Of a stretch of DNA of 64,000 nt, positions 13,047 through 49,653 are shown piece by piece. The notes below the pieces were generated by a model. The model had not been told where the DNA came from. It did not search any database and saw only the letters and a list, made by a program, of their open reading frames with translations. This DNA comes from Bacteroides congonensis (lineage in GTDB: Bacteria; Bacteroidota; Bacteroidia; Bacteroidales; Bacteroidaceae), in assembly GCF_900130125.1 (NCBI RefSeq), contig NZ_FQXY01000006.1, forward strand, positions 186,001 to 250,000, in the 5' to 3' direction. The stretch's first letter is position 1; each line of letters starts with the position of its first letter. The position numbers and the translations under genes are program-made.

Positions 13047-13054
13047 CAAAGATA
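13047..13054 (-). promoter_or_regulatory. -7 element of the GH43-esterase operon
   Basis: Minus strand TATCTTTG, a perfect -7 match, 45 nt before the ATG at 13002. Its first base is exactly 38 nt downstream of the proximal hexamer of operator D. No TTG is present about 20 nt upstream, which fits activator dependence. Confidence 0.8.
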
Positions 13055-13086
13055 AATGGAGCCGGTTTCCTACTTTATTAAAACCG

Positions 13087-13114
13087 GATTAACCGGAGAT
13101 TAAAAAACAATTAA
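13087..13114 (-). promoter_or_regulatory. Operator D: three hexamers at 11-bp period
   Basis: Read on the minus strand the hexamers are TTAATT (13114-13109), TTAATC (13103-13098) and TTAATC (13092-13087). A further TTAAGC at 13123-13118 is out of register (9 bp). The proximal hexamer starts 38 nt before the -7 element at 13054, as at the four other operators in this locus. Confidence 0.8.
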
Positions 13115-13274
13115 ATCGCTTAAAATGCCGTTTTTCATCTAAAATCCACCCGGACAACAGATGGAAACCAAAATAAAAAACATTCTTGCCCACAAGTTTT
13201 TTTAGTCCCGCAAAGTTGACAACCAAACCTTGCTTTTCTTCATTATTTTGAAGAAAAACGAGCGTTTTGTGCAA

Positions 13275-13302
13275 TTAATCACTTTTTAATCCCAGATTAA
13301 TT
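13275..13302 (+). promoter_or_regulatory. Operator A: three hexamers at 11-bp period
   Basis: Hexamers TTAATC (13275-13280), TTAATC (13286-13291) and TTAATT (13297-13302) are direct repeats with exact 11-bp spacing. The proximal one starts 38 nt before the -7 element at 13335. The arrangement is that of a SARP-type activator site. Confidence 0.8.
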
Positions 13303-13334
13303 CTTTTCCTTCCCCCTTTTTAATGCTTTTCCCT

Positions 13335-13342
13335 TTACTTTG
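13335..13342 (+). promoter_or_regulatory. -7 element of the GH2-GH92 operon
   Basis: TTACTTTG, one base off the TAnnTTTG consensus, 41 nt before the ATG at 13384. The same octamer is used at operator E. No TTG is found at the -33 position. Confidence 0.7.
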
Positions 13343-13383: not shown

Positions 13384-16300
13384 ATGAAGAAGAATCTAAT
13401 CCTATTGTGCAGTCTGCTGGCTAGTTTTACCTTACAGCCCATACAGACGAATGCACAAACAGTTACTAACGGACAAAAGTTACTTTATCCCTACCCTTTT
13501 GCTCCCAGCGAGGGCTTAGTGAATAAAACCGAGAAAGAACACCGTCAAGAAATTTGCCTGAACGGCTACTGGGATTTTCAACCTGTTGCTTTACCGAAGG
13601 ACTACAAACAAGGGAAAGGAACAGCTCCCGAATTGCCACTCCCGAAAGAAGGCGACAGTTGGAGTGCGACACGCATCAAAGTTCCTTCTCCATGGAATAT
13701 CAACTCTTTCGGTTATCGTGATTTAGAGGGGCCCGACCATCGCAACTATCCTTCTTACCCGAAAGAATGGGAACAGGTAAAAATGGCATGGATGAAGAAG
13801 AACATCACCATCCCCGCCAACTGGACAGGTCAGCAAATCAAACTTCACTTTGAAGCCGTCGCAGGATATTCCGAAGTCTATGTCAATAAGAAAAAGTTAG
13901 GCGAGAATTTCGATTTGTTCCTGCCTTTCAGCTTCGACATCACAGATAAAGTGACTCCCGGCGAAACTGTGGAAATACTTGTAGGAGTACGCAGCCAGTC
14001 CTTATTTGAAGATAACTCGACTATCGGACGCCGTATCGTACCAGGTGGTTCTATGTGGGGGTATCATATCAACGGTATCTGGCAAGATGTATATCTGTTG
14101 GCATTGCCCCAAATACATATAGAAGATGTATATGTGAAACCGCTGGTTTCCAAGAATACATTGGAAATAGAAGTAACCCTGAAGAATAAAACCACCCAGA
14201 AAGCCAACATACAACTGCAAGGCAATGTAAAAGAATGGATAAACTGTGCCGGAACGGACATTAATTCCGCTCCCGTTCCTGCTTGGACATTGGGTACGGA
14301 AGCGTTACAGGTAGCTCCGCTCAAAGTTTCGCTGGCAGCCAATGAAACACAGAAAGTAACTTTACAAGTACCTGTCGGCAAGAATACGCTCCAATACTGG
14401 ACTCCCGAACAACCGAACCTGTATGCCTTGTTACTTTCCATAAAAGACAAAAAACAGACTGTCGACACGAAATACGAACGCTTCGGCTGGCGTGAATGGA
14501 CATTGCAAGGAACTACACAATGTCTGAACGGCGAACCTTATGCATTGCATGGAGACTCCTGGCACTTTATGGGTATCCCGCAAATGACACGCCGCTACGC
14601 ATGGGCATGGTTCACTGCCATTAAGGGCATGAACGGAAACGCAGTCCGTCCGCACGCACAGGTCTATCCCCGCTTCTATATGGATATGGCCGACGAAATG
14701 GGTATCTGCGTACTGAATGAAACCGCCAACTGGGCAAGTGACGGCGGACCGAAACTAGATTCGGAACACTTTTGGGAATCATCAAAAGAACATCTGAAAC
14801 GTTTTGTCTTGCGTGACCGCAACCATGCTTCCGTCTTCGGATGGAGTGTCAGCAACGAGAATAAACCTGTTATCCTGCATGTATATAACCGTCCCGAACT
14901 AATGCCCACCCAACAAAAGGCATGGGAAGAATGGCGCGACATCGTACGCCTATATGACCCTACCCGTCCCTGGATTTCATCTGACGGTGAGGACGACGGC
15001 AACGGCATACTACCCGTAACCGTAGGACACTATGGAGACATCAACTCCATGAAAAACTGGATTAACATCGGCAAGCCTTGGGGTATCGGCGAACACAGCA
15101 TGGCTTACTACGGAACACCGGAACAAGTATCCAAATACAATGGAGAACGTGCTTACGAATCACAGGAAGGACGTATGGAAGGACTGGCAAACGAGTGTTA
15201 CAACCTGATAGCCAACCAACGCCGGATGGGTGCTTCATACACCACTGTCTTCAATATGGCATGGTATGCACTGAAACCACTCCCACTCGGCAAGAGAGAT
15301 GTAACGAAAACGCCTTCCGTGACGGAAGACGGCGTATTCTTCGGCGAATACAAAGAAGGGGTTCCGGGCGTGCAACCCGAACGTGTAGGCCCTTATTGCA
15401 CGACATTCAATCCCGGTTACGACCCAACCTTGCCACTCTATCAGGAATGGCCGATGTATAGCGCCCTGCGGGCCGCCAATGCTCCGGGAGAACCGGCATG
15501 GTCACCTTACGCCACAATCGACAAAGAACAATACAAGGCCCACGAAGCCACAAATGCAACCGGGAATTATAAAGAAGTAGTATACGTGGGCAATCCGGAC
15601 AGCAAAGTAAAACAACTGATGGACGCACAGGGAGTAACATTCGCTTCAAAAATAACTACTCCTTCCTCACTGCTTTATATAATAGACGGTAGCCGCGCAT
15701 TAGATGCCGCCACCCAAAAAGAACTGCAAAAGCAGCTTGCCAAAGGTGCAGATGCATGGATTTGGGGAATTACACCGGAAACCGTAGGAAGATACAACGA
15801 GATTCTGCCGCTTCCGGTAGCCTTAGACCCGCTGAAACGTTCTTCTTTCCTACCTGTGCAGAAAGCATGGATGCATGGACTCAACAACTCCGACTTCTAT
15901 TTCTGTGAACTTCAAAAGGCGGATGCTTCCGAGTATTCACTGAAAGGCGCATTCGTAGAAGAAGGCGATGTCCTACTGAACGCCTGCAAGACAGACTGGC
16001 GCAAGTGGAACAAACGACCGGAAGAAATCAAGACAGCCGGAACAATCCGCAGTGAATACGAATGTACGTCCGCCACTCCGGTGTTTGTCAAATACCGGGA
16101 AGGCGCTTCCACTTTCTATTTAAATACACTAACCGAGTTCGCCAATTCAGAAAAAGGATACAATACCCTGAGCGCTATCTTGAAGAACGCAGGAATCCAG
16201 TCCCAAAAGCCGGAAATCGACATTAACGAAGTCTTTTTCCTGCGCGACGAGCAGATGAACTTCCCGGTAGCCACCAAAGATAAATTCGTGAAGGAGAATG

Positions 16301-16626
16301 ACAGCCGGACATTGGAATTTTATGTATTCAGCCCGCGTCCCCTGGACGACCTGTTGATAGAGCCTAATATGCCGAAACTCTCCCTGATGTTGAAAGCGAA
16401 GAAACGCGAACTGTTCATTAATGACAAGCCTTATACAAGCGTATCGCACAATGGGCGGAATGAAATAATCTATAAAGAGCTTCCTCTATTGCAAGGCTGG
16501 AACAAGTTTATCATTAAAATAGGAGAAGGCGACCGGAACGACTTTACCGGATTCTTCAAATGTGACAACAAACAGGATTTTCTTCCGACTTTAAAGGCTG
16601 CCTTCATCAACCCGGAAGACAAATAA
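13384..16626 (+). CDS. GH2 family beta-glycosidase
   Basis: A 1,080-residue exported enzyme (signal peptide ending IQTNAQ). The N-terminal jelly-roll sugar-binding domain (LNGYWDFQPVALP, residues about 45-240) is followed by an Ig-like domain and a TIM barrel. Both catalytic glutamates are present: acid/base Glu492 in GWSVSNENK and nucleophile Glu570 in GIGEHS. Unlike classical LacZ the barrel has a HGDSWHFMGIPQMTRRYAWAW region and the protein has a long C-terminal extension of about 400 residues. GH2 covers beta-galactosidases, beta-mannosidases and beta-glucuronidases, and I cannot decide among them; a glucuronidase role would fit a glucuronoxylomannan substrate. It heads an operon with GH92 (36-nt gap) behind operator A. 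Confidence 0.88.
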   Translation: MKKNLILLCSLLASFTLQPIQTNAQTVTNGQKLLYPYPFAPSEGLVNKTEKEHRQEICLNGYWDFQPVALPKDYKQGKGTAPELPLPKEGDSWSATRIKVPSPWNINSFGYRDLEGPDHRNYPSYPKEWEQVKMAWMKKNITIPANWTGQQIKLHFEAVAGYSEVYVNKKKLGENFDLFLPFSFDITDKVTPGETVEILVGVRSQSLFEDNSTIGRRIVPGGSMWGYHINGIWQDVYLLALPQIHIEDVYVKPLVSKNTLEIEVTLKNKTTQKANIQLQGNVKEWINCAGTDINSAPVPAWTLGTEALQVAPLKVSLAANETQKVTLQVPVGKNTLQYWTPEQPNLYALLLSIKDKKQTVDTKYERFGWREWTLQGTTQCLNGEPYALHGDSWHFMGIPQMTRRYAWAWFTAIKGMNGNAVRPHAQVYPRFYMDMADEMGICVLNETANWASDGGPKLDSEHFWESSKEHLKRFVLRDRNHASVFGWSVSNENKPVILHVYNRPELMPTQQKAWEEWRDIVRLYDPTRPWISSDGEDDGNGILPVTVGHYGDINSMKNWINIGKPWGIGEHSMAYYGTPEQVSKYNGERAYESQEGRMEGLANECYNLIANQRRMGASYTTVFNMAWYALKPLPLGKRDVTKTPSVTEDGVFFGEYKEGVPGVQPERVGPYCTTFNPGYDPTLPLYQEWPMYSALRAANAPGEPAWSPYATIDKEQYKAHEATNATGNYKEVVYVGNPDSKVKQLMDAQGVTFASKITTPSSLLYIIDGSRALDAATQKELQKQLAKGADAWIWGITPETVGRYNEILPLPVALDPLKRSSFLPVQKAWMHGLNNSDFYFCELQKADASEYSLKGAFVEEGDVLLNACKTDWRKWNKRPEEIKTAGTIRSEYECTSATPVFVKYREGASTFYLNTLTEFANSEKGYNTLSAILKNAGIQSQKPEIDINEVFFLRDEQMNFPVATKDKFVKENDSRTLEFYVFSPRPLDDLLIEPNMPKLSLMLKAKKRELFINDKPYTSVSHNGRNEIIYKELPLLQGWNKFIIKIGEGDRNDFTGFFKCDNKQDFLPTLKAAFINPEDK

Positions 16627-16662
16627 GATAGGATTAGAAACAACTAAAAATAAAAAGTAACC

Positions 16663-18924
16663 ATGAGAATTACACATTTCTTCGCTGCCGCAACAATCGT
16701 TGCCATATTAAGCGGATGCAATGGCGGACAGTCGCAGAGCTCCAACAAGGAGCCTGTCGACTATGTCAATCCGTACATAGGTAATATCAGCCATCTGCTG
16801 GTTCCTACATTCCCTACCATCCAACTACCGAACAGTATGCTCCGCGTCTATCCCGAACGCGCCGACTATACAACCGAGTTGTTAAACGGACTGCCTCTGA
16901 TTGTTACCAATCATCGCGAACGTTCCGCGTTCAACCTCAGCCCCTATCAGGGAACGGAGCTCCGCCCCATCATTACTTACAACTATGATAACGAGCGTCT
17001 CACCCCTTACTCATACGAAGTAGACCTGGACGACAACCGCATGAAAGCAGAGTATGCCCTTTCCCATCAATCCGCCCTTTACCGGATAACCTTTGAAGCG
17101 GACAAACCTGCCTATATCATTGTCAACTCCCGCAATGGCTCTATACATGTAGGGGAGAACTTTATCAGCGGACATCAGCAACTGAGCGACAACACCAATG
17201 TATATGTATATATCGAACCGCAGGAAAAACCGGTAAGTACAGGTATCCTGAACGACGGTGTCATCGAAGCCAGCAAAGACAATGCAGAAGGCATAAATGC
17301 TTGTGCAGCATGGCGTTTCGCCGACGGAACAACGACAGTCAACCTTCGTTACGGCATTTCTTTCATCAGCGAAGAACAAGCAGAAAAAAATATGCGCAAC
17401 GAACTGAAAGACTACAATATAAAGAACCTGGCAAAAGCCGGGCGCCAACTGTGGAATGAAACCTTGGGACGCATCAAGGTGGAAGGCGGTACGGAAGACG
17501 ACAAGACCGTATTATATTCCTCGTTCTACCGTACTTTCGAACGTCCTATCTGTATGAGTGAAGCCGGCGGCCGCTACTTCAGCGCCTTCGACGGCAAAGT
17601 ACATGACGACAACGGTACACCTTTCTATAACGACGACTGGATTTGGGACACCTACCGCGCCGCCCACCCGCTTCGCACACTCATCGACCAGAAAAAAGAA
17701 GAAGATATTATCGCTTCTTTCCTGTTGATGGCGGAACAGATGGGAACGATGTGGATGCCTACCTTCCCCGAAGTGACAGGCGACTCACGCCGTATGAACT
17801 CCAATCATGCCGTCGCCACCATAGCCGACGCCCTTGCCAAAGGCTTGAACATAGATGCGGCAAAAGCCTACGAAGCCTGCCGGAAAGGAATTGAAGAGAA
17901 AACTCTCGCCCCTTGGTCGGGAGCCGCTGCCGGATGGCTGGATGAATTCTACCGTGACAACGGATATATCCCCGCCCTTCGCCCGGACGAGAAGGAAACC
18001 GACCCGAACGTGCATCCTTTCGAGAAGCGCCAACCTGTTGCCGTCACATTGGGAACCAGCTACGACCAATGGTGTCTTTCACGCATCGCGGACGCATTAG
18101 GCAAAAAAGACGAAGCCGCCCACTACCTGCAATGTTCTTACAACTACCGGAATATCTTCAATAAAGAAACAAGTTTCTTCCACCCGAAAGATAAGGAAGG
18201 CAACTGGATTACTCCATTTGACTACCGTTATTCAGGCGGTATGGGTGCCCGTGAATATTATGGCGAAAACAACGGCTGGGTATATCGTTGGGACGTCCCC
18301 CACAATGTAGCCGACCTCGTCAACCTTATGGGCGGAAAAGAACAGTTCATCGCCAACCTCGACCGTACTTTCAGCGAACCGCTGGGACGCAGCAAATATG
18401 AATTCTATTCAAAACTCCCCGACCACACAGGCAACGTCGGACAGTTTTCCATGGCAAACGAACCGTCATTGCACGTACCTTATCTTTACAACTACGCAGG
18501 TCAGCCCTGGAAAACTCAGAAACGTATCCGCCAAATGCTGAAAACCTGGTTCCGCAATGACCTTATGGGGATGCCGGGAGACGAAGACGGCGGTGGCATG
18601 ACTTCATTTGTAGTTTTCTCCTCACTGGGTTTCTATCCTGTCACTCCGGGAATGCCCGTCTACAATATCGGGAGTCCTCTTTTCACCAATGCAAAAGTGA
18701 CCCTCAGCAACGGTTCCGTATTTGAAATCGAGGCTCCGGACGCTTCCGAAGAAAATAAATATATCCAGTCGGCTACACTGAACGGTCAGGAATGGGAGAA
18801 ACCCTGGTTCAGCCACGATGATTTGAAAAACGGTGGAAAATTAGTATTGAAAATGGGCAATAAGCCGAATAAGGCATGGGGCAGCGGAATCAATGCCGCT
18901 CCACCCTCAGCAGACAGTAAATAA
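16663..18924 (+). CDS. GH92 family alpha-mannosidase
   Basis: A 753-residue lipoprotein (lipobox before CNGGQSQSS). GH92 enzymes are calcium-dependent inverting exo-alpha-mannosidases. Family marks: DYVNPYIGN at the start of the mature protein, DDWIWDTYRAAHPL, the acid-bearing YGENNGWVYRWDVPHNV (Glu near residue 535), and near residues 638-665 MPGDEDGGGMTSFVVFSSLGFYPVTPG followed by YNIGSPLF (given here as separate motifs around GDEDGGGM). The length is normal for the family. It follows GH2 by 36 nt and precedes a strong terminator. It implies alpha-mannose in the target glycan; the linkage (1,2, 1,3 or other) cannot be read from sequence. Confidence 0.93.
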   Translation: MRITHFFAAATIVAILSGCNGGQSQSSNKEPVDYVNPYIGNISHLLVPTFPTIQLPNSMLRVYPERADYTTELLNGLPLIVTNHRERSAFNLSPYQGTELRPIITYNYDNERLTPYSYEVDLDDNRMKAEYALSHQSALYRITFEADKPAYIIVNSRNGSIHVGENFISGHQQLSDNTNVYVYIEPQEKPVSTGILNDGVIEASKDNAEGINACAAWRFADGTTTVNLRYGISFISEEQAEKNMRNELKDYNIKNLAKAGRQLWNETLGRIKVEGGTEDDKTVLYSSFYRTFERPICMSEAGGRYFSAFDGKVHDDNGTPFYNDDWIWDTYRAAHPLRTLIDQKKEEDIIASFLLMAEQMGTMWMPTFPEVTGDSRRMNSNHAVATIADALAKGLNIDAAKAYEACRKGIEEKTLAPWSGAAAGWLDEFYRDNGYIPALRPDEKETDPNVHPFEKRQPVAVTLGTSYDQWCLSRIADALGKKDEAAHYLQCSYNYRNIFNKETSFFHPKDKEGNWITPFDYRYSGGMGAREYYGENNGWVYRWDVPHNVADLVNLMGGKEQFIANLDRTFSEPLGRSKYEFYSKLPDHTGNVGQFSMANEPSLHVPYLYNYAGQPWKTQKRIRQMLKTWFRNDLMGMPGDEDGGGMTSFVVFSSLGFYPVTPGMPVYNIGSPLFTNAKVTLSNGSVFEIEAPDASEENKYIQSATLNGQEWEKPWFSHDDLKNGGKLVLKMGNKPNKAWGSGINAAPPSADSK

Positions 18925-18942
18925 GCTACAACCGGTTTATAT

Positions 18943-18997
18943 GAAGATGTCGCAAAATAGAATTTTCATTTCCTGCATTCTATTTTGGGACATCTTC
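18943..18997 (+). terminator. Terminator of the GH2-GH92 operon
   Basis: Arms 18943-18951 and 18989-18997 (9 bp) and inner arms 18954-18963 and 18977-18986 (10 bp) form a long stem with one internal mismatch, followed by a T run. It separates GH92 from the regulator gene. Confidence 0.78.
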
Positions 18998-19099
18998 ATT
19001 TTTCATAAAACGTATGATAGATAGTAATGCCAAATGTTTGTTTCAAAGTATTGCCCCATAAATAACTCCCATTTCTTGGGGATATCATACAGTTTTTTG

Positions 19100-19107
19100 T
19101 ATTTTTG
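19100..19107 (+). promoter_or_regulatory. -7 element of the regulator gene
   Basis: TATTTTTG matches TAnnTTTG; a TTG at 19075-19077 lies 22 nt upstream as a possible -33 element. There is no hexamer array here, so the regulator is probably made constitutively. The element lies just upstream of the ATG at 19126 and rules out an earlier start. Confidence 0.55.
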
Positions 19108-19125: not shown

Positions 19126-21708
19126 ATGAAATATCAACTGCAAATTTTGCTCTTCGTCCTGCTTTGCACGGTAGGTAAAGTGGACGCATCTTCTTTGTAT
19201 GATTATGGTCTTTCTCTCAAATCCCATACAGTGCCGGGAGTAGAGAGAACCACCTTGTACTTGGATGATAACCAACCTTTCTCTATAAAAAACGACTTCA
19301 TCATTTCCTTTCAGATGTATGTACGGGCAGGCGAACCCGACTTTGGTTCCATTCTCCATCTGCATACAAATACGAACCAGTTTATCCGCTTCTCATTTGT
19401 CGCAGGTGAAGAAAGGCATTTCCCGGCATTGGTGCTCAACGAAGGTATCGTGAACATAAACAGCCCCATAGAACGGGAAAAATGGCTGGATGTATCTTTG
19501 CACCTACGCCTGAAAGACAACGTTATCGAAGTAGATTACGACAACAAGAAAATATCGGCAATGGCTCCCCTGCAAGGAGTGAAAAGCGTAACGGCTTCAT
19601 TCGGACAGATGCAACAATACCTGGCAGACGTAGCTCCTATCGACCTGAGAAACATAACCATCACACAAGATGGAAAACAGATACGAGAATGGAAACTGTG
19701 GAAACACAATGACGATGTCTGCTATGATGAAATAGAAGAGGCCGTGGCACGCGCAGTCCATCCTCTATGGCTGATAGACAATCATATTGAATGGAAACTT
19801 ATCCACCAGGCTAAAATTCCGGGAAAACTGAACATAGCCTTTAACGTCCGCGACGCCTTGTTTTATATCGTCAAATCCCAGTCTATTGATATTTTAGATG
19901 AAAACGGAGTCCTTCAAAAAGAAGTAACCATACGCGGCGGTTATCCGGCTGTCGAGTCTCCCAACCATCTTATATACGATACGTTAAGCAACCGGTTAGT
20001 CTCTTATTTCCCGAAAAAAGGCACAACTTCCAGCTTCTCGTTCGATACGGAGAAATGGAGCAACGAGGTACGCAATACGGAAGAAGCCTCTAACTACAAC
20101 CATGCCAGGGCATTTAATCCGGCAGACTCTTCTTTCTATTTCTTCGGAGGCTATGGTTTCTACCAATACCGCAATGACCTCTATCGGATGAAGTCCGGCA
20201 GCGGCAAAGTAGAACAGATAGAATACGAACGCCCCCTCTATCCCCGCTACTCGGCAGCTATGGCGGTGGTAGGCGATGAACTATATATCTTTGGCGGCAG
20301 AGGATACAAGTACGGCAAGCAGGAACTAAGCACTCACTACTATTGGGGCTTGTGTGCCATCAATCTGAAAACCAAGCAATCACGTATCGTCTGGCAAAAA
20401 GACAATCCCAAAGCGGACGGCACAATTATGGCTTCATCCATGTATTTCGAACCATCGGACAGTACCTTCTACGCCGTCTCGACAAATAAAGGGGGCGTAT
20501 TGTGGAAGATTTCGATGAAAGACTCCGTTTACACGGAAGTCTCCAAGCCTATTTATAACGAATCGACCTATCAAGACTGTGATTTCAGCCTTTATACCTC
20601 TCCGTCGCACGGAAAACTGTTCCTGGTATTAGATAAGATACTAAGCAACCATACTCACGATGTAGCTATCTATTCCATCAATATGCCACTCGTGAACGAA
20701 ATGGATATCCGGCAGTCCACGGCTGAAGAGGATACCGGCAGTTGTTGGTATATCTACGTCACCGGTATCATCCTGCTTGTCTTAGGTGGTTTCGTATTCT
20801 ACCGCTTGAAATGCAAGAACAAGAAGGAAGAAACACCTGCCCCCAAGAAAATCGCAGAAAATCCAGCTATGACAGAAACCGGAAATACCCAAAAACAACT
20901 GGAACCGACAGAGTACAAGGCGGCATCGAGAAGAGAAATAATGCAAGACACAGAGCCCGTTTTCACTGAAACGATGAACTATTACGACCGTAGCCGTGCA
21001 TCAATTTCTTTACTGGGCTGTTTCAACGTACGCGATAAAGATGGGAATGACATCACTTCCAACTTCACCCCCCGCTTGAAACATATGCTTATCCTGCTGA
21101 TACTCCATACAGAGAAAAATTCCCAGGGCATTTTAGCATCCAAGACAACGGAAATACTATGGCCGGACAAGGAAGAAACAGCCGCCCGCAATAACCGTAA
21201 CGTAAACCTGCGCAAGCTACGGGTACTCTTGGAAAGCATCGGAGACATGGAAGTAATGATAGAAAACAATTTCCTGCGTATCAAATGGGGAACAGACGTT
21301 TTCTGCGACTACCATACCCTGATTGCCTGTACCAAACAATTCGAGCAGGAGAAAAGTGAAGAACTATTGAACCGAATCCTGGAATTACTATTATACGGCC
21401 CCTTACTCCCCAACACGATTCTTGATTGGCTGGACGACTTTAAGGACGATTATTCCAGTTATTCCATCGACTTATTGAAGAACCTGCTGGACATTGAAAT
21501 CAGCCGGAACCATCAGGATATGATTATCCGCCTTGCCGACATCATGTTCCTGCACGACCCGCTGAATGAAGAAGCATTGGCAGCCAAGTGTTCCGTACTA
21601 GTCGCACAAGGAAAGAAAGGTATTGCCCGAAACCTGTACGACCGCTTCTGCAAAGAGTATCATGACTCCATGGGTGAAACTTATAAAGTCCCCTTTGCCG
21701 ACTTATAA
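19126..21708 (+). CDS. Membrane-spanning SARP-type regulator with LamG/Kelch sensor
   Basis: An 860-residue predicted one-component regulator. Signal peptide (LQILLFVLLCTVGKVDA); a LamG/concanavalin-like region at about 20-190 (FIISFQMYVRAGEPDFGSILHL); a Kelch-like propeller at about 240-520 (SFYFFGGYGFYQYRNDLYRM and DELYIFGGRGYKYG); one membrane helix at about 541-561 (VTGIILLVLGGFVFY) followed by a basic stop-transfer KCKNKK; a charged linker; a winged helix of the SARP/OmpR type at about 624-728 (SISLLGCFNV, then TEILWPDKEETAARNNRNVNLRKLR split around the recognition helix); and a BTAD-like helical domain to the end. It would sense a glycan outside the inner membrane and bind DNA inside. 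It lies between the GH92 terminator and the susC operator of the locus whose five promoters carry 11-bp direct repeats. No kinase or receiver domain is present. The start at 19126 is the ATG before the signal peptide. Confidence 0.88.
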   Translation: MKYQLQILLFVLLCTVGKVDASSLYDYGLSLKSHTVPGVERTTLYLDDNQPFSIKNDFIISFQMYVRAGEPDFGSILHLHTNTNQFIRFSFVAGEERHFPALVLNEGIVNINSPIEREKWLDVSLHLRLKDNVIEVDYDNKKISAMAPLQGVKSVTASFGQMQQYLADVAPIDLRNITITQDGKQIREWKLWKHNDDVCYDEIEEAVARAVHPLWLIDNHIEWKLIHQAKIPGKLNIAFNVRDALFYIVKSQSIDILDENGVLQKEVTIRGGYPAVESPNHLIYDTLSNRLVSYFPKKGTTSSFSFDTEKWSNEVRNTEEASNYNHARAFNPADSSFYFFGGYGFYQYRNDLYRMKSGSGKVEQIEYERPLYPRYSAAMAVVGDELYIFGGRGYKYGKQELSTHYYWGLCAINLKTKQSRIVWQKDNPKADGTIMASSMYFEPSDSTFYAVSTNKGGVLWKISMKDSVYTEVSKPIYNESTYQDCDFSLYTSPSHGKLFLVLDKILSNHTHDVAIYSINMPLVNEMDIRQSTAEEDTGSCWYIYVTGIILLVLGGFVFYRLKCKNKKEETPAPKKIAENPAMTETGNTQKQLEPTEYKAASRREIMQDTEPVFTETMNYYDRSRASISLLGCFNVRDKDGNDITSNFTPRLKHMLILLILHTEKNSQGILASKTTEILWPDKEETAARNNRNVNLRKLRVLLESIGDMEVMIENNFLRIKWGTDVFCDYHTLIACTKQFEQEKSEELLNRILELLLYGPLLPNTILDWLDDFKDDYSSYSIDLLKNLLDIEISRNHQDMIIRLADIMFLHDPLNEEALAAKCSVLVAQGKKGIARNLYDRFCKEYHDSMGETYKVPFADL

Positions 21709-21925: not shown

Positions 21926-21964
21926 TTAATTCACATTTAATTGTTTTTTAATCCCCAATTAATC
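21926..21964 (+). promoter_or_regulatory. Operator B: four hexamers at 11-bp period
   Basis: Hexamers TTAATT (21926), TTAATT (21937), TTAATC (21948) and TTAATC (21959) are spaced by exactly 11 bp. The proximal one starts 38 nt before the -7 element. It is the only operator of the five with four in-register copies and controls the transporter operon. Confidence 0.82.
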
Positions 21965-21996
21965 GCAAACACCACGCTTTTTTTATCGGTTCACAG

Positions 21997-40106: not shown

Positions 40107-40125
40107 ACAATAAATTTAAAAGCCG

Positions 40126-40173: not shown

Positions 40174-40192
40174 TCAACAAATATGGTAAAAC

Positions 40193-42745: not shown

Positions 42746-42772
42746 TATTACCTTTTTCTATCTTACATTGAA

Positions 42773-44476
42773 TTAATTGCCATTACCATTCTCATTAAAA
42801 GCAGTTATCGAGAAATAATATTCCGAGTCCCGGTTAAAATAACGGGCTTCGTATTGATTGTCGAACACAGTTACTGCGTGCGTCAACTTATCTTTCTGGG
42901 TTCCCCACCGCAGCACATATCCGGTCGCTCCTTCCTGTGCGTCCCAAGTGAAACGATAGATTCGTTTGTCATCCTTATCCCGAATTGCCCGGAAGCCTGT
43001 CACTTGAGCAGGTGCCACCCCCTCTCCCTTGCCGAATACACGAAAGCCGGACAAAGAAAAACACCCTTCCATATCTTTCGCATTACAAATCCTCAGGTAT
43101 CGGAGTTTCATCGGCTTCTTTAATGTAAACAAGCGATGAGGCTCATCTTTTTCATTTTCCCTTTCGTCAATCAAAGTTACCCATTTCTTTCCGTCTGCCG
43201 AGCCTTCGATAAAGTATTGATAAGCAACCGGTGGATGCGGTGCAAATACTTTAAAATTGTGGTCGGCAAAGTTCACATGCACAGCATTTACTAACATTGG
43301 AGTTTGCAAATCAACTTGCAGCCATTCATCCTTCTTTCCGGTTTGGGCAGCCCACCAGGTTTCAATCTGTTCATCATTAACGTTATCCGGCTCATAAGCG
43401 GTAAGGGACGAAGAAGCCTGCACCGGTTTCCGGTACGATAGCAGGTTCCATCCCATGCTTAAATCAGTTTTCTCAAAGTCCACTTTCCGGTCGGGAATGG
43501 AGAAAGGATAATCCGACCAAGCTGTGTGGGCATACATACCATTGCGGGTAGAAACAACTACCGGAAAAAGCCCCAACCGCCGCTCAAACCAATGACGGAC
43601 AGAAATGGTCATAGTAGCTACATGCCAATAATTTCCATACTTATCCAAGAAAGTATGTCCATGCCCTGCCCCGCCGATGAAGCCACCCGGTTTGAATGAA
43701 AACGGATTGTCTTCCATATATTCAAAAGGCCCCAAAGGAGTATCCCCTACATAGATTCCGTCTCCATAAATACGATATTGAGTGCCCGGAGCCACATACT
43801 GTAAATAGTAACGTCCTTCGAATTTCAACATGCAAGGGCCCTCGTTCCATCCCTGGCGTGGCTCTTCATTATTCTTTCCGGGAACTTCCCAACCGTATTT
43901 ATCACCATGATGCGCTATCAGCGCTTTGGCTTCACCGATTGCACGAAAACCGTCTTTCGGGTCTACTTCCACGCCCATAATCGGTTCTCTATCCGAACAG
44001 CCCCAATACATATATACTTTGCCATCCTCATCTTTATAGAAAGCCGGGTCGTGCAAACGATAAGTAAGCCTGGTATCCACAGCTTCCCAAGTATCTTGTT
44101 CCGGGTGAGCATTCTTGAATATCTGAGTTTTCCCGCTGGAAGTAGTAAAATAGAGCGTGTCTCCTATCGGCAAAATAGTGGGAGCATAATCTTCTAAAGT
44201 AGGGATAGTAGTACAGAGAATATACTCCCAGTTCGCCAAATCATCAGAACGCCAATATCCACCGGACTTGGACGCAAACAGATAGTAATAGCCTTTAAAG
44301 TACTCCAATACCGGGTCTGCCGCTTCACGACGCGATTCGTCCTTTGGCTGAAACCGGTAGTTCAGATTGATGGGATTGGTCACAATTCTATGTCCGGCTA
44401 TCCGCTTTTCCGATGAGCAGGAAGTGATGCATCCTGCCAATACACCCGCTATCAACAGGTTAGTAGCTCTTTTCAT
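42773..44476 (-). CDS. GH43-like glycosidase with F5/8-type (CBM32-like) and FN3 domains
   Basis: A 567-residue lipoprotein (Cys in GCITSCSSEKR). The five-blade propeller at about 30-330 shows the GH43 triad: Asp in AADPVLEYFKGYYYLF, Asp in LHDPAFYKDEDGKVYMYW and Glu in WNEGPCMLKFEGRYYLQY. A discoidin/F5-8 type C domain follows at about 345-475 (YEPDNVNDEQIETWWAA, EWLQVDLQ, LRYLRICNA), then a fibronectin-III-like end (ITGFRAIRDKDD-like segment to SEYYFSITAFNENG). This GH43 differs from the other two in the locus. Specificity for xylose or arabinose side chains is likely. Third gene of the operon from operator E, 38 nt after the GH3 stop. Confidence 0.88.
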   Translation of the reverse strand: MKRATNLLIAGVLAGCITSCSSEKRIAGHRIVTNPINLNYRFQPKDESRREAADPVLEYFKGYYYLFASKSGGYWRSDDLANWEYILCTTIPTLEDYAPTILPIGDTLYFTTSSGKTQIFKNAHPEQDTWEAVDTRLTYRLHDPAFYKDEDGKVYMYWGCSDREPIMGVEVDPKDGFRAIGEAKALIAHHGDKYGWEVPGKNNEEPRQGWNEGPCMLKFEGRYYLQYVAPGTQYRIYGDGIYVGDTPLGPFEYMEDNPFSFKPGGFIGGAGHGHTFLDKYGNYWHVATMTISVRHWFERRLGLFPVVVSTRNGMYAHTAWSDYPFSIPDRKVDFEKTDLSMGWNLLSYRKPVQASSSLTAYEPDNVNDEQIETWWAAQTGKKDEWLQVDLQTPMLVNAVHVNFADHNFKVFAPHPPVAYQYFIEGSADGKKWVTLIDERENEKDEPHRLFTLKKPMKLRYLRICNAKDMEGCFSLSGFRVFGKGEGVAPAQVTGFRAIRDKDDKRIYRFTWDAQEGATGYVLRWGTQKDKLTHAVTVFDNQYEARYFNRDSEYYFSITAFNENGNGN

Positions 44477-44514
44477 TGTGTTTTTCTATTTATTTGTTCC
44501 GGCAAATGATGGCT

Positions 44515-47379
44515 CTACAGAGCCACCATTTTATACTTGGTAGTAAAAGCGACAGGCTGCTTATTGTCCTTGCCCAACTTGAACGGAATCAGTTTTTCTT
44601 CTCCGGCTCCCAGTTCATAATGGATAGCATCACCCACCTTTTTACCGTCAACAAACATTTCTACTTTTCCAATATCCATCAGTGTGCCTTTATTCTTCAC
44701 ACTTACCCATACGGTCTTTTGGTTCTTCGTCAGATTCTCTTCCACTTTCGAAATAGAGAGGTCGAAGTCAGCGCCAAACTCATGAGTATAATCAAGCATA
44801 CCGGATACGCCCTTTTTCTTATCGCTAAAGCCTACACTATGTTTAATCTCATTGTTGGCCTTATAGTCAGGACTCATACCGCCGACACATATCTTGAATT
44901 CTCCTTTTTCCACTACTCTGTCCATGCGGTCATTGAGCAACGAAATATCGTACGGTGTCAACTCAAAAGAGACGTTTTTTGATTCTCCCGGTTGCAAGTG
45001 AATACGCTCGAAGTCTTTCAGTTCCATGACACGGGTCTTTACACTGGCATACATATCCGTCACATACAACTGTGCCACTTCATCACCGGCACGGCTTCCT
45101 GTATTTTTCACCGTTGCCTGAACTGTTATATTTCCATCCGGTTTTTCCTGTATCTTCAGATTAGAATATTCAAAGGAAGTATAGCTAAGACCGAATCCGA
45201 AGCGGTAAAGGGGATAATATTCCATATCCACATATTCATAACGGCGTCCTGAAGTCTTGAAGTTATAATATAATGGAAGTTGCCCAACGTGGCGCGGGAA
45301 AGTCATCGGCAAACGACCGCCGGGATTATAATCGCCAAACAGCACGTCCGCCATTGCCGGACCACCTTCTTGTCCCGGAAGCCAGTTTACAAGAATAGCC
45401 TTACACATTTCGGATGCTTTCAGAATATCATAAGGACGTCCTGCCTGAAGAACCAGAATCACAGGTTTCCCTGTTGCACAAACCGCTTCCAGCAATTCCT
45501 GTTGCTTGCCCGGCAAAATCAAGGTAGCCCAGTCATTATTTTCTCCGCATGTCTTGCGGACGTCGTTGGTGGCTTCACTGGTGGAACAGTCGCCCAATAC
45601 CATTACTACAACATCCGATTGGGAAGCGGCTTTGACTGCTTTGGGGATATTCGTTGCATCCGGATTTGTAAAGTCACAACCTTGTTCATAGAGAACTTTT
45701 GTCTGTTTGCCCACGGCATTCCTTATACCCGTCAGGACGGATTTCAATTGTCCGGGCTGCAATTTCGGAGTGTAATCACCCGGCTGAAGGTCATCTGCCC
45801 CAGGGCCTAATACGGCAATAGTGCGTACGGTCTTGGACAAAGGCAAAAGATTATCCTTATTTTCCAGCATTACAATAGATTCGCGGGCCGCCTGACGTGC
45901 CATTTCTTTATGGCTGTCCGAGTTCCATCCCGGATAGATTTTCTTCCAGTCCAAAGGTTTGCAAGGGTTCTTCTCAAAGAGTTCGTTGCGGAACATGGTA
46001 GATAGCATGGTACGACATACGTTATCCAAGTTTTCCATATTGATACGTCCGTCTTTTGCAGCTTGAATCACTTCCTTATTGTTATAAGTGTCACCGCAAT
46101 TGGTAGCGATACCGGCAGCCAATGCCTGATTGGCAGCTTCAATCTTATCTTTTGCCGTATAATGTTTACGGGCAGTCAGATTCCCGATAGCACCGCAGTC
46201 ACTGACGATAAATCCGTTGAATCCCCATTCCTGACGTAAAATCTGTTGCAGCAGTTCCGTGCTCTTGGCAACAGGAATTCCCATATAGTCGGAGTAAGCC
46301 ATCATCAAAGACTGGCAATCGTAGTTGCGGATAGCATGACGGAACGGAACCAAATGCACCTCACGCATCTCACGCTCGGACAGGCCGATGTCGTGCGAGT
46401 CACGTCCGCCCAACGGAGCGCCATGTCCGCCAAAATGCTTGGGAGTGGTGAACAGGCCTCTGGACTGATAACCTTTAATCCATGCACCGCCTATTTGTGA
46501 AACCAGTACCGGGTCTTCCCCGAAAGTTTCTTCACAACGTCCCCAGCGTGCATCCTGTGCAACATCCAATACGGGCGACCATGCCTGTTTGGTATTTGCC
46601 GCTACAGTCTCGTCACCGATTACCATCGCCACTTCTTCCGTCAGTTTCCGGTTCCAGGTCGCTCCCATCGCCAAAGCCTGCGGGAAAATAGTCGCGCCGC
46701 TTCCGTACGAGAAACCATGTACTGCTTCTACCTTTGTGATAGGCGGTACATACAAATGAGGAATACCGGGAATCCCCCATCCTTCACGAATCAATTCCAT
46801 TTTATCTTCCGGCGTCATTACAGCCAACAGGCTCTCTACGCGTTCTTCTACGGGAAGGGACGCGTCCATATAACGACGGTCGGTTACTTTACCTTTGCTG
46901 TCCTTCAACACCTTTTCCGCTACGAGCACAGAAATCTCCTTAAGAGAAAAAGGCTTATCCAGCTTTCCTGATTTGAAGTTCAGCTTGACATGAGCACCAT
47001 ATTTAGGGGGAAATTTCACTTTCATTTGTTTATCACTCCCCTCTACCTGATAACTTACAGGAGTTCCCAGGTTCATCGGGTCATAAGTGACAAAAATATC
47101 CAATGCATCTTTCAACTCATTTTTGTTGATACCTTGCATCTGAAGCTCCAGCTCGCAGACATCACCGGGTTGTTGAATGGTAAACATCAGCCATTGTTCG
47201 GTCTTTAATGCCTGAGAGGGGATTGTCCACATTGTCTTTGCATTTTTATCAAATGCCAAAGAAGCATTTTCTGCGTTTGCAGAAGCCGCTACCGATAGAA
47301 TATCGCTCTGTTGTTGCGCCATTGCTACTGAACACGACAATAATCCTACTGCCAGCATCCATTTCATTTTGTTTTTCAT
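44515..47379 (-). CDS. GH3 family beta-glycosidase with N-terminal discoidin-like domain
   Basis: About 954 residues with signal peptide (MLAVGLLSCSVAMAQ). Residues about 25-160 form an F5/8 type C-like sandwich (AFDKNAKTMWTIPSQ, LKEISVLVAE) of probable carbohydrate binding. The GH3 barrel shows the ARWGRCEETFGEDPVLVS and KHFGGHG motifs and nucleophile Asp in GFIVSDCGAIG. The second GH3 domain and an FN3-like domain follow (GRLPMTFPRHVGQLP, RFGFGLSYTSFEYS), plus a C-terminal beta domain of about 90 residues. Upstream the frame opens with a TTG codon at 47397; the ATG at 47379 just before the signal peptide is preferred. It starts 44 nt after the GH71/99-GH43 fusion and is second in the operon. 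Confidence 0.92.
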   Translation of the reverse strand: MKNKMKWMLAVGLLSCSVAMAQQQSDILSVAASANAENASLAFDKNAKTMWTIPSQALKTEQWLMFTIQQPGDVCELELQMQGINKNELKDALDIFVTYDPMNLGTPVSYQVEGSDKQMKVKFPPKYGAHVKLNFKSGKLDKPFSLKEISVLVAEKVLKDSKGKVTDRRYMDASLPVEERVESLLAVMTPEDKMELIREGWGIPGIPHLYVPPITKVEAVHGFSYGSGATIFPQALAMGATWNRKLTEEVAMVIGDETVAANTKQAWSPVLDVAQDARWGRCEETFGEDPVLVSQIGGAWIKGYQSRGLFTTPKHFGGHGAPLGGRDSHDIGLSEREMREVHLVPFRHAIRNYDCQSLMMAYSDYMGIPVAKSTELLQQILRQEWGFNGFIVSDCGAIGNLTARKHYTAKDKIEAANQALAAGIATNCGDTYNNKEVIQAAKDGRINMENLDNVCRTMLSTMFRNELFEKNPCKPLDWKKIYPGWNSDSHKEMARQAARESIVMLENKDNLLPLSKTVRTIAVLGPGADDLQPGDYTPKLQPGQLKSVLTGIRNAVGKQTKVLYEQGCDFTNPDATNIPKAVKAASQSDVVVMVLGDCSTSEATNDVRKTCGENNDWATLILPGKQQELLEAVCATGKPVILVLQAGRPYDILKASEMCKAILVNWLPGQEGGPAMADVLFGDYNPGGRLPMTFPRHVGQLPLYYNFKTSGRRYEYVDMEYYPLYRFGFGLSYTSFEYSNLKIQEKPDGNITVQATVKNTGSRAGDEVAQLYVTDMYASVKTRVMELKDFERIHLQPGESKNVSFELTPYDISLLNDRMDRVVEKGEFKICVGGMSPDYKANNEIKHSVGFSDKKKGVSGMLDYTHEFGADFDLSISKVEENLTKNQKTVWVSVKNKGTLMDIGKVEMFVDGKKVGDAIHYELGAGEEKLIPFKLGKDNKQPVAFTTKYKMVAL

Positions 47380-47423
47380 GTTATATTCGTTTTTCAAATA
47401 TTATTAGTATTCCGTTTATCTAT

Positions 47424-49532
47424 TTATTTCGTCTGCTTTACCATTTGTATAGTGCCGTCCTGATTGTAGTATAACTTATCTACACAAATAGAGCGCAACC
47501 AATCATGCCCGGACAGTGTGCTGTTGTGATAGAAAGCATACCACTGCCCTTTGAACTGGACGATAGAGCCATGATTCGTATAGCTGTCGGTCGGTTCCAT
47601 ATAGATACCTTTCGATTCCCATGGTCCCAGCGGGGAGTCACTGATGGCATAACGCATCCGATTATCTCCTTTCACGCCGTCATTCCAGTTCTCATCATGG
47701 TTGTCGGAGTAGGACAGGTAATATTTTCCGTTATATTTGTGAATCCAGGCTGCTTCGTGGAAGTCTTCCAACCCTTTCATCAGTTGCATCGAACCATCCA
47801 GTTCTATCATATTATCTTTCAGCTTGCCTCCTTTGCAGATGCCGCCACCGCCATTGTAGATATAAGCCTGCCCGTCGTCATCCACAAAGACGCAAGGGTC
47901 AATCAGCGGGTCCATTCCCTCGATATATCCCTGCACTTTGAATCCTTCCGCCGGCTTGTTGCTGGTAGCCACTCCAATCTTCCAACTGTTATCCCACGCT
48001 GTCTCACTGGGATGGGGAAAATAGAAATAATAAGTACCGTTCCTGTAAGCACAGTCCGGTGCCCACATAAAACCGCCCTCTTTCCGTCCCCAGGGTACTT
48101 GTTCAGAACTAAGAATCTCCCCGTGGTCTGTCCAGTTCACCATATCGTCGGTTGAGAATACATGATAACGGTCCATCAAGTCACATCCGCGCGGCGGGGC
48201 AATATCATGGGAAGCATATACATACAAGCGTCCGTCTTTCCAGACATGAGCCGAAGGGTCGGCTGTGTACATATGCCGGATAAAGGGATTCGGAGCTGCA
48301 GGATTCAGACTTGTATTCAGTGCTATCGCCTTTTCCTTACGTAAAATCTTACCCGCTTCGCCTACTAATTTCAGATAATGGTCACTTTCCACCCCTTCCT
48401 CGATAGGCACAAACGTACTTTCACCTACCGGAACTTTCTTGGCACACTTAAAGATAGCCGTCCCCTCGTCTATTTCATCAAACATTGCTACATAAATCAT
48501 TTCGGCACCTGCCCGAATAGCTCCCATCAACTGTTCCCAAAGGAAAGAGCCTTTGTTGCGGGGGATAAGTGAATTGTTATCTTTCCCCTTCATATTCGCC
48601 CATGAAAAACCCGGGAAAACCAACGGAGCATAATCAACCTGATTCTTCTTCGCCCACTGAATATCTTCTTCTACGAGTTTCTGATATTTCGGATAGATAG
48701 TCTGATTGTATCGCCCAACAAACCAGGGCATGATAATATCACATTTTCTGATAAGTGCGTGCAACTGAGGGTCTGATTCCGTATCACCTTTCAGTTCGCG
48801 CCACTGGGTAGGCACTCCAAGCATCACACTGAATCCCTGAGATTTCAAGCCATCGATGATACGCGCAGCTTCTTTCAGCCCATAACGTCGGTTATCATTA
48901 AATCCCACTCCCCATACCGTAACCAGTGGCTTGCCGTTGTGATACAGATAGGAAGAATTCTTTGCCCGATTTTTTATGGAATATCGCTGTGCAATCTCCG
49001 CTATGTCTTTGAGCAGGAAGTCTTCCTCACCCGGCTTCATTCCGCTCAAGTCGTACATCACACAGATAGCACGCTCATATTTATTGGCAGCTTTCATTGC
49101 CGAGTTCAGTACTTTATTGAAATGCTTCATCCCACTTTCGTTTCGAATCTCCGTGATAAAACGCTGCATGAATACTCCGTCCAGTCCATACTCTTTCATC
49201 CATTTGAAATGAACATTGACCGTAGACTCATCATAAGAAGAAAAAACAGATGCCTGTTTACCGTCCGCAAAAGTAAACTCCGTTTTATAGAGTTTCTTAT
49301 ATTCCGACACTTCCGGCCAGAAATCGACCGAACAGGAACCCGGACGAAACCCATCACGACCATTGTAATGATGCCAGCCACGACCGGAGCCGTCACCAGG
49401 GGTATTGAACCACCCCTGATAACCAGCCATGACCAATCCTTTGTAAGAATCATACCGCTTCTTGCCGGATTGTGCAGTCGCCCCTATTGAAAACAATAAA
49501 AATACCAATATCCAATCAAACCTTTTTACCAT
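47424..49532 (-). CDS. GH71/99-like domain fused to a GH43 domain
   Basis: A 702-residue exported protein (signal LVFLLFSIGATAQ) with two glycosidase units. Residues about 28-390 are a GH71/99-like barrel (GLVMAGYQGWFNTPGDGSG at the start) whose last strand reads MFDEIDEGTAIF, keeping the E-x-x-E-G pattern (Glu353 and Glu356) of GH99 alpha-mannanases. Residues about 415-702 are GH43: Asp425 in YTADPSAHVW, Asp545 in LIDPCVFVDDDG and Glu593 in FHEAAWIHKY, all retained; this half is a close relative of the GH43 domain at 10489-13002. The fusion suggests that one enzyme cuts a backbone and a pentose branch in concert. First gene of a four- to five-gene operon behind operator E. Confidence 0.88.
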   Translation of the reverse strand: MVKRFDWILVFLLFSIGATAQSGKKRYDSYKGLVMAGYQGWFNTPGDGSGRGWHHYNGRDGFRPGSCSVDFWPEVSEYKKLYKTEFTFADGKQASVFSSYDESTVNVHFKWMKEYGLDGVFMQRFITEIRNESGMKHFNKVLNSAMKAANKYERAICVMYDLSGMKPGEEDFLLKDIAEIAQRYSIKNRAKNSSYLYHNGKPLVTVWGVGFNDNRRYGLKEAARIIDGLKSQGFSVMLGVPTQWRELKGDTESDPQLHALIRKCDIIMPWFVGRYNQTIYPKYQKLVEEDIQWAKKNQVDYAPLVFPGFSWANMKGKDNNSLIPRNKGSFLWEQLMGAIRAGAEMIYVAMFDEIDEGTAIFKCAKKVPVGESTFVPIEEGVESDHYLKLVGEAGKILRKEKAIALNTSLNPAAPNPFIRHMYTADPSAHVWKDGRLYVYASHDIAPPRGCDLMDRYHVFSTDDMVNWTDHGEILSSEQVPWGRKEGGFMWAPDCAYRNGTYYFYFPHPSETAWDNSWKIGVATSNKPAEGFKVQGYIEGMDPLIDPCVFVDDDGQAYIYNGGGGICKGGKLKDNMIELDGSMQLMKGLEDFHEAAWIHKYNGKYYLSYSDNHDENWNDGVKGDNRMRYAISDSPLGPWESKGIYMEPTDSYTNHGSIVQFKGQWYAFYHNSTLSGHDWLRSICVDKLYYNQDGTIQMVKQTK

Positions 49533-49585
49533 GTTATTCCTTTGTTTTTCATGTTATACTTTTAAGTCTTTAAAACTATTTTCAG

Positions 49586-49593
49586 CAAAGTAA
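49586..49593 (-). promoter_or_regulatory. -7 element of the fusion-GH3-GH43-GH3 operon
   Basis: Minus strand TTACTTTG, identical to the element at 13335-13342, 54 nt before the ATG at 49532 and exactly 38 nt after the start of the proximal hexamer of operator E. Confidence 0.7.
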
Positions 49594-49625
49594 AGGGACA
49601 TCCCTTAATAAATTCCGCCAAAGTC

Positions 49626-49653
49626 AATTAATAATGACTTAAAATCGAATTAA
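49626..49653 (-). promoter_or_regulatory. Operator E: three hexamers at 11-bp period
   Basis: On the minus strand: TTAATT (49653-49648), TTAAGT (49642-49637) and TTAATT (49631-49626), spacing exactly 11 bp. Same distance of 38 nt to the -7 element as the other four operators. It marks the right edge of the locus. Confidence 0.8.

What the first reader, a model, noticed from the sequence alone, without database searches (positions are those of the whole stretch)
13047..49653. A five-promoter regulon marked by 11-bp direct hexamer repeats at a fixed distance from the -7 element
All five transcription units of the large locus have three or four in-register hexamers TTAA[T/G][C/T], 11 bp apart, and the proximal one begins exactly 38 nt before a -7 element (13275-13302 to 13335; 21926-21964 to 21997; 33578-33605 to 33638; minus 13114-13087 to 13054; minus 49653-49626 to 49593). 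None has TTG at the -33 position, whereas other promoters in the window do (WYL gene, kinase gene). The sequence facts are seen directly. That SARP regulators bind direct repeats at 11-bp period is established in Streptomyces; the fixed distance fits an activator that replaces the -33 contact.
Basis: partly seen in the sequence, partly recalled or inferred. Interest (0 to 1): 0.95.

Follow-up and report, generated by a model that had tools for sequence, protein, structure and literature searches.

The report
Membrane sugar sensor with phased operators
In a Bacteroides sugar-degradation gene cluster, five promoters carry evenly spaced TTAA repeats locked to the promoter element, and these are likely the binding sites of one membrane-spanning sensor in the cluster whose inner part is predicted to fold like the antibiotic-gene activators of Streptomyces.

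Summary
In the 6.37-Mb genome only these five promoters match three 11-bp-spaced hexamers, 38 nt and the -7 box with at most one mismatch. That is the published SARP position, about 8 bp from the -10 element. In 85 stretches around relatives of the locus's regulator, TTAA peaks at offsets 15, 27, 38, 49 and 60; 40 control stretches are flat. The peaks recur in 52 stretches fetched later. The regulator (19126-21708) is predicted to have a kelch propeller outside, one membrane helix, and a cytoplasmic domain whose only strong PDB fold matches are AfsR and EmbR. Spacing class follows the regulator tree. The regulator's own promoter is canonical, without an array. Most likely a membrane-bound, one-component SARP activates these operons in place of the -33 contact. 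Binding, ligand and activation are untested, and about half of the family shows no such array. None of the listings from ten paper searches names such a regulator in Bacteroides.

The parts
19126..21708 (+). Regulator gene, 860 aa (likely start ATG 19126; the mechanical ORF begins at TTG 19105): signal-peptide-like N-terminus and a beta-sandwich (LamG-like by my own reading, named by no call), kelch propeller, one predicted membrane helix (about residues 539-564), low-confidence linker 565-621, cytoplasmic winged helix + helical SARP-type domain (about residues 622-860)
19076..19107 (+). Canonical promoter of the regulator (TTG 19076, TATTTTTG 19100-19107), no array
18941..18999 (+). Terminator-like hairpin between the P1 genes and the regulator (-28.4 kcal/mol, z -7.76)
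13275..13342 (+). P1: hexamers 13275, 13286, 13297; half-site TTAATG 13320-13325 (15 nt before -7); -7 TTACTTTG 13335-13342; before GH2 and GH92 genes
21926..22004 (+). P2: hexamers 21926, 21937, 21948, 21959; half-site TTTATC 21982-21987; -7 TTCTTTTG 21997-22004; before the susC/susD-like genes
33578..33645 (+). P3: hexamers 33578, 33589, 33600; half-site TTTATT 33623-33628; -7 TATCTTTG 33638-33645; before a GH2 gene
13047..13114 (-). P4: hexamers 13114, 13103, 13092 (descending); half-site TTAATA at offset 27 (13081-13076), none at 15; -7 TATCTTTG 13054-13047; before the GH43/CBM6 gene
49586..49653 (-). P5: hexamers 49653, 49642, 49631 (descending); half-site TTAAGG 49608-49603; -7 TTACTTTG 49593-49586; before the GH43/GH99-like gene
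13384..18924 (+). P1 genes: GH2 (13384-16626), GH92 (16663-18924)
   Evidence: co-transcription inferred
22148..33432 (+). P2 genes: susC-like, susD-like, WbsX-like, DUF5010+CBM35, 910-aa protein with only a sub-threshold DUF4988 match
   Evidence: co-transcription inferred
33675..37373 (+). P3 gene: GH2, with a sub-threshold 3-keto-disaccharide hydrolase match at its start
   Evidence: start inferred
7409..13002 (-). P4 genes: GH43+CBM6 (10489-13002), 499-aa protein without Pfam match (8933-10432), GH32 (7409-8836)
   Evidence: co-transcription inferred
37512..49532 (-). P5 genes: GH43 with weak GH99 match, GH3, GH43+F5/8C, GH3+PA14, GH95
   Evidence: co-transcription inferred

Best explanation
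The five promoters are likely the operators of one membrane-spanning regulator encoded inside the locus (19126-21708), whose cytoplasmic part is predicted to fold as a SARP DNA-binding domain and would bind the in-register TTAA half-sites and recruit RNA polymerase in place of the missing -33 element. Shown by the calls: the arrays, their fixed phase, their conservation, and their co-occurrence with this regulator family. Predicted by model: kelch propeller, one membrane helix, cytoplasmic winged helix plus helical BTA-like domain. Inferred: the outer part lies in the periplasm and senses an oligosaccharide released by the locus's enzymes, and this changes how protomers gather at the membrane. 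Side-by-side protomers then fill half-sites about one per helical turn (60, 49, 38 and, where present, 27 and 15 nt before -7). The promoter-nearest protomer, at 15 nt (TTAA or TTTA; at 27 in P4), sits where the downstream protomer of AfsR sits. It would hold sigma region 4 and the beta flap, so that a promoter with no -33 box, and in three of five cases an imperfect -7 box, fires. The regulator has its own canonical promoter behind a terminator-like hairpin, as expected for a sensor that must be present before induction.
For: Genome-wide exclusiveness: TTAA x3 at 11 bp + 23 + TTWA + 15 + TWNNTTTG with at most 2 mismatches gives 5 hits, the five promoters (4 with 0 mismatches, P4 with 2); reversed control 0. 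Orthologous loci: arrays at 38 nt before -7 for P1-P4 in B. finegoldii (L055, L056), P1, P2 and P4 in Bacteroides sp. GM023 (L085), P1 and P2 in Bacteroides sp. 51 (L087); columns inside the sites invariant at 0.79-0.88, outside 0.33-0.46. Family: 85 stretches, 726 deduplicated -7 candidates, TTAA counts 15:61, 27:37, 38:59, 49:38, 60:31 against a median of 9; 40 control stretches, 650 candidates, 15:2, 27:3, 38:5, 49:4, 60:9, median 5; at least 3 grid sites in 52 of 726 against 0 of 650; 12 shifted grids 0-3 of 726 each. Stretches fetched after the grid was noted: 34 of 424 candidates, shifted 0-2, and 33 of 51 regulators. Genus scan: 86 hits in 21 of 158 genomes against 2 for the reversed pattern; 20 of those 21 have a family match, base rate 68 of 158, hypergeometric P 1e-7 (genomes not independent); 68 of 86 hits within 60 kb of a listed member. 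Fold: domain model pLDDT 95.0; the six PDB matches with E <= 0.001 are AfsR complexes 8k60, 8hvr and EmbR 2fez, 2ff4 (E 1.4e-6 to 1.4e-5, TM 0.63-0.66 by query length). Published SARP rule: passages of PMC10936776. Spacing class on the regulator tree: 6 changes over 44 regulators, 300 label shuffles at least 16. 0 of 78 regulators sit behind an array within 250 nt.
Against: No binding, transcription or ligand data. Sequence-level membership is weak: BTAD 15.7 bits against a 22.1 cut-off, 11 of 21 relatives match BTAD at E up to 1, and a profile search of PDB sequences gave TPR and other unrelated proteins but no SARP. The 15-nt site is TTAA in 2 of 5 window promoters, TTTA in 2, absent in P4. 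32 of 78 regulators (26 of 50 clusters at 80% identity) show no 3-site array in the stretch fetched. In Bacteroides sp. 51 the scan found arrays for P1 and P2 but none for P4, whose place the stretch should cover. 18 of 86 genus-scan hits lie over 60 kb from, or on another contig than, a listed member. Only 25 of 78 regulator genes have a clear TTG-N18..22-TAnnTTTG promoter. Co-segregation of spacing with regulator clade may partly reflect inheritance of whole loci.
Confidence: 0.82

Rival explanations
1. The arrays bind a different DNA-binding protein (another regulator encoded elsewhere, or a nucleoid protein), and the kelch-SARP gene is only a neighbour.
For: No direct binding data; 18 of 86 array hits in the genus lie away from a listed family member, and one array genome of 21, G460, has no listed member.
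Against: No other DNA-binding family was found among the ORFs scanned between P4 and P5; 20 of 21 array genomes carry the family; arrays lie near regulators of several clades and fit the published SARP spacing rule.
Confidence: 0.1
2. The repeats are phased A/T tracts acting as an intrinsically curved or UP-element-like upstream sequence, without a dedicated activator.
For: The half-sites at 49 and 15 are mostly preceded by T (T two bases before TTAA in 25 of 27 and 29 of 42), and 11-bp phasing of T tracts could bend DNA.
Against: The word is TTAA, mostly followed by T or G, with single-nucleotide phase; control candidates of the same genomes with three or more grid sites: 0 of 650; the five promoters have no -33 TTG, so a bare curved promoter would likely be weak.
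Confidence: 0.05
3. The regulator is a repressor that silences the five promoters until a glycan is present.
For: The proximal half-site at 15 nt overlaps the promoter spacer and could block polymerase (inference).
Against: The promoters lack -33 boxes and 3 of 5 have an imperfect -7 box, which suits activation; AfsR with the same placement activates (PMC10936776 passages).
Confidence: 0.07

Closest known systems
AfsR and the SARP family of Streptomyces (PMC10936776, passages seen)
   Same: Predicted fold over the whole 241-aa domain; direct repeats 11 or about 22 bp apart; promoter-proximal repeat about 8 bp upstream of the -10/-7 element; poor -35/-33 element.
   Different: Here the SARP-type domain is the C-terminal, cytoplasmic end of a predicted membrane protein with a kelch sensor; core word TTAA; four or five half-sites in the window promoters; 11-12-bp steps and a 23-bp gap; controls (inferred) sugar-degradation genes in Bacteroides.
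Hybrid two-component systems (HTCS) of Bacteroides (PMC3878776, passages seen)
   Same: Glycan-locus regulators encoded in the locus; direct repeats spaced by helical turns.
   Different: No histidine kinase, receiver or AraC domain found here; HTCS motifs are two sites about 21 bp apart on average, and the passages seen mention no lock to the -7 box.
SusR-like regulators of Bacteroides (PMC3878776, passages seen)
   Same: Regulators of polysaccharide loci with direct-repeat sites.
   Different: SusR motifs are two sites 67 or 77 bp apart; that the DNA-binding domain is of another family is recalled.
EmbR of Mycobacterium tuberculosis (structure 2fez)
   Same: SARP fold, third-best structural match.
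   Different: Carries an FHA domain (PMC10936776 passage) instead of a kelch sensor and membrane helix.

Membership tests
SARP | Winged-helix (ODB) domain followed by all-helical BTA domain | tested here: met
   Domain model pLDDT 95.0; the only PDB matches with E <= 0.001 are AfsR and EmbR chains, over 242-249 columns, TM 0.63-0.66 by query length. A predicted, not a solved, structure
SARP | Pfam BTAD model above its gathering score | tested here: not met
   Window protein 15.7 bits, cut-off 22.1; 11 of 21 relatives match at E <= 1, best 4.6e-6. A statement about one sequence model, outweighed by the fold
SARP | Direct repeats 11 or 22 bp apart | tested here: met
   All five promoters at 11 bp; family grid 15/27/38/49/60, i.e. 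11-12-bp steps, and a 23-bp gap from 38 to 15
SARP | 3' repeat 8 bp from the -10 element | tested here: met
   Family peak of TTAA 15 nt before -7, i.e. 8 bp after a 7-mer. In the window TTAA in 2 of 5, TTTA in 2 of 5, absent in P4
SARP | SARP domain at the N-terminus (large SARPs carry extra domains behind it) | tested here: not met
   Domain at the C-terminus, after a predicted membrane helix. Treated as an architectural variant
SARP | Activates by holding sigma region 4 and the beta flap | not testable with these tools
   Needs in vitro transcription or a structure
HTCS | Histidine kinase, receiver and AraC domains in one protein | tested here: not met
   Pfam scan gave kelch-type matches only; fold searches gave kelch and SARP
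SusR-like | Two sites 67 or 77 bp apart | tested here: not met
   Three or more sites 11 bp apart; SusR spacing from a passage of PMC3878776

The most novel reading that the evidence does not exclude
Bacteroidota use a further class of glycan-locus switch beside HTCS, SusR and ECF-sigma systems: transmembrane kelch-SARP proteins that read a periplasmic sugar and, without phosphorelay, line up on phased TTAA operators to hand the housekeeping sigma factor to promoters that have lost their -33 box. The operators follow a code: an anchor at 15 nt and clade-specific occupancy of an 11-12-bp grid.
Probability: 0.7. Interest if true: 0.87.

Novelty: new variant of a known kind. Interest (0 to 1): 0.82.

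Why it matters
It would give a readable operator code for glycan loci without the textbook regulators: from promoter letters one could name the target genes of a kelch-SARP and pair them with its sensor. It would show that the SARP way of starting transcription, known from Streptomyces antibiotic clusters, also works from the membrane, in another phylum and with its unusual -33/-7 sigma factor. It makes an open question directly testable: how a membrane-tethered protein loads on promoters up to 28 kb away in the same locus (P5 to the regulator).

Tried and rejected
Scanning the two paralogue loci of the own genome for self-similar 11-bp triplets at about 38 nt found nothing, because their spacing differs. 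A scan for any 6-letter word at grid offsets around the 32 regulators without a 3-site array gave degenerate TTAACC/GTAACC arrays for L151, L154, L169 and L130 and a TTAA array out of phase (36, 47, 58) for L072, and nothing for the other 27; the row for L066 was a run of N and was ignored. The single 2-mismatch genome hit (C7:329043) reads on + between two genes into the 3' end of a gene on -, so it is unlikely to be a promoter. Flanks of ten regulators from other families: three TTAA- or GTTA-type repeats at 11-24-bp steps beside five (L212, L215, L216, L220, L228), but only L215 has the 15-nt anchor, so I do not claim the code phylum-wide. A profile search of PDB sequences with the SARP-type domain gave TPR and other unrelated proteins but no SARP; the fold search found AfsR.

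Rows left out: of the stretches fetched near regulators, L022, L024, L026, L083, L084 and L086 were not in the 85 (flanks, overlaps or a duplicate of B. finegoldii). The 85 include overlapping stretches and some without a regulator; -7 candidates over 70% alike were counted once. The control stretches lie at round coordinates that I chose in genomes that carry the family. Regulator counts are not thinned for relatedness; one search gives the thinned count. In one search, 51 member positions were typed; weak fragments were left out.
Full report
What was checked. The five arrays were read out and aligned on the -7 box. Each has three hexamers TTAA[T/G][C/T] exactly 11 bp apart, the last starting 38 nt before the -7 box; P2 has a fourth in register at 71. 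In the whole genome, with up to three mismatches, the combined pattern gives ten hits; those with at most one mismatch are the five promoters. The -7 boxes are TTACTTTG, TTCTTTTG, TATCTTTG, TATCTTTG and TTACTTTG for P1 to P5, so two of five are exact TAnnTTTG.

What was missed. Towards the promoter, P1 has TTAATG and P5 TTAAGG starting 15 nt before the -7 box; P2 and P3 have TTTATC and TTTATT there; P4 has TTAATA at 27 instead. In five orthologous loci compared, P2 keeps TTTAT and P1 keeps TTAAT in 5 of 5; one of the five (L120) is nearly identical to the window. The fuller pattern finds the five promoters and nothing else in the genome with up to two mismatches. Passages of PMC10936776 state that in SARP promoters the 3' repeat lies 8 bp from the -10 element, that repeats are 11 or 22 bp apart, and that the afs box spans -40 to -19.

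The regulator. The gene at 19126-21708 encodes 860 aa. Pfam finds kelch-type matches. The full-length model (pLDDT 82.4) shows an N-terminal helix, a beta-sandwich, a propeller, a helix at 539-564 that I take as the membrane helix, a low-confidence linker 565-621, and a winged helix with a helical domain. Fold search of the whole gives kelch propellers; the domain alone (pLDDT 95.0) gives AfsR in transcription initiation complexes (8k60, 8hvr) and EmbR (2fez, 2ff4) as the only matches with E up to 0.001. Sequence profiles see this only weakly or not at all. One source names a relative 86% identical 'DNA-binding SARP family transcriptional activator'; others call it kelch-repeat, transmembrane or hypothetical protein. 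The regulator has its own TTG-N21-TATTTTTG promoter with no array, and a terminator-like hairpin stands between it and the P1 genes. In the family, 0 of 78 regulators have an array within 250 nt upstream, 67 of 78 have a TAnnTTTG there, and 25 of 78 a TTG at the -33 distance.

Conservation. P1 and P2 arrays stand at 38 nt in five of five loci compared, P4 in four of four, P3 in two of two (L087 entered for P1 and P2 only, as the scan found no P4 array there). Sites are more conserved than the letters between them (0.79-0.88 against 0.33-0.46 invariant columns). P5 has full matches in two further genomes with an orthologous regulator, G384 and G408.

The family. A match at E up to 0.001 occurs in 68 of 158 genomes of the genus, five of them with nothing better than E 5e-5 and some only with fragments; at most six candidates per genome were scored. 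In a phylum sample, 36 of 395 genomes match, nine of them outside this family with a nearly full-length protein. I took 85 stretches around 78 distinct regulators, listed all non-coding T[AT]NNTTTG boxes and counted those over 70% alike once. The offset of TTAA from the box peaks at 15, 27, 38, 49 and 60; forty control stretches, with no ORF similar to the regulator, are flat. The grid was noted on the early loci; the 52 later stretches, which include relatives of the early ones, repeat it: 34 of 424 candidates with three or more grid sites, 0-2 for shifted grids, 33 of 51 regulators. Overall 46 of 78 regulators, or 24 of 50 clusters at 80% identity, have such a promoter in the stretch fetched; 0 of 40 control stretches do. 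So about half of the family shows no array in this scan; a few have degenerate ones.

Co-occurrence. Scanning 158 genomes of the genus with the fuller, class-A pattern at up to one mismatch gives 86 hits in 21 genomes, against 2 for the reversed pattern. Twenty of these 21 genomes have a family match; the exception is G460 (92% complete, hit at base 819 of contig C207). Sixty-eight of 86 hits lie within 60 kb of a listed member. The genomes are relatives, so the P value of 1e-7 is not to be taken at face value.

Spacing code. Classes by occupied offsets: A (38/49/60 or 15/38/49), B (26/37 with 15), C (27/38/58-59), D (15/27/38), E (27/38/50-51). On the regulator tree these need 6 changes over 44 regulators, against 16 or more in each of 300 label shuffles. 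The helix that I take for the recognition helix reads NNR in 21 of 23 class A regulators, 5 of 5 B and 2 of 2 D, and NLK in 9 of 9 C and 4 of 5 E; the base after TTAA at offset 38 is C in 2 of 24 class A promoters and 5 of 7 class C promoters. This last is a lead, not a test.

Mechanism. In AfsR two protomers sit side by side on the two repeats of the afs box and sigma region 4 rests on them. If the -10 element begins at -12, those repeats begin about 28 and 17 nt upstream of it (my arithmetic); our half-sites at 27 and 15 fall within two nucleotides. The simplest reading is the same sigma adaptation with extra upstream protomers. TTG at offsets 22-24 is found in 1 of 52 array promoters and 11.7% of 650 control candidates, as expected if the -33 box is not used; many control boxes are no real promoters, so this is a modest test. 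Sensing by the kelch part, gathering at the membrane and the ligand are inferred; the enzymes (GH92, GH2, GH43, GH3, GH95) suggest a fucosylated, mannose-containing glycan, also inferred.

Literature. Ten searches of the held library were answered. None of the listings shows a paper that by title or abstract treats a SARP regulator of Bacteroides glycan loci; two of them were cut (20 of 158, 10 of 15), and most listed papers were not opened. In PMC3878776, on SusR-like and HTCS regulators, the words SARP and kelch do not occur, nor in the review PMC12632263. PMC7366714 (passages) gives the -7/-33 background and does not contain SARP. Most subscription papers are not in the library, so this is no proof of absence.

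Noticed in passing
G257:C1:4859046-4859113: A 68-nt array promoter identical to the B. finegoldii P5 orthologue lies 869 kb from the nearest listed family member; either a transferred operon whose regulator was not scored, or an orphan target.
   Followed up: no
L023 7574-11560 (own genome, C1): A second full-length paralogue of the regulator, with two promoters that have TTAA at 27 and 59/60 and, by eye, an imperfect copy near 39, but no 15-nt TTAA.
   Followed up: partly
L025 666-3440 (own genome, C11): A third paralogue; the gene after it (an ORF that looks like GH92 by its first letters) has a class B array at 15, 26, 37 before TACTTTTG.
   Followed up: partly
L064, L071, L167, L168: Shorter relatives of about 490-500 aa with the same C-terminal domain; none of the four has a 3-site array, so they may be a different kind of regulator.
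   Followed up: no
window 30700-33432, 8933-10432: Locus proteins of 910 and 499 aa without a Pfam match above cut-off or an NCBIfam match, next to genes behind array promoters.
   Followed up: no
window 57857-59799: LytTR response regulator and histidine kinase pair outside the locus; the kinase gene has a canonical TTG...TACCTTTG promoter.
   Followed up: partly
window 60653-63406: Two tandem DUF4925 genes.
   Followed up: no
L212, L216, L220, L228 (distant genomes of the phylum): Three TTAA- or GTTA-type repeats at 11-12-bp steps beside the regulator, but not in the same phase with a -7 box.
   Followed up: partly
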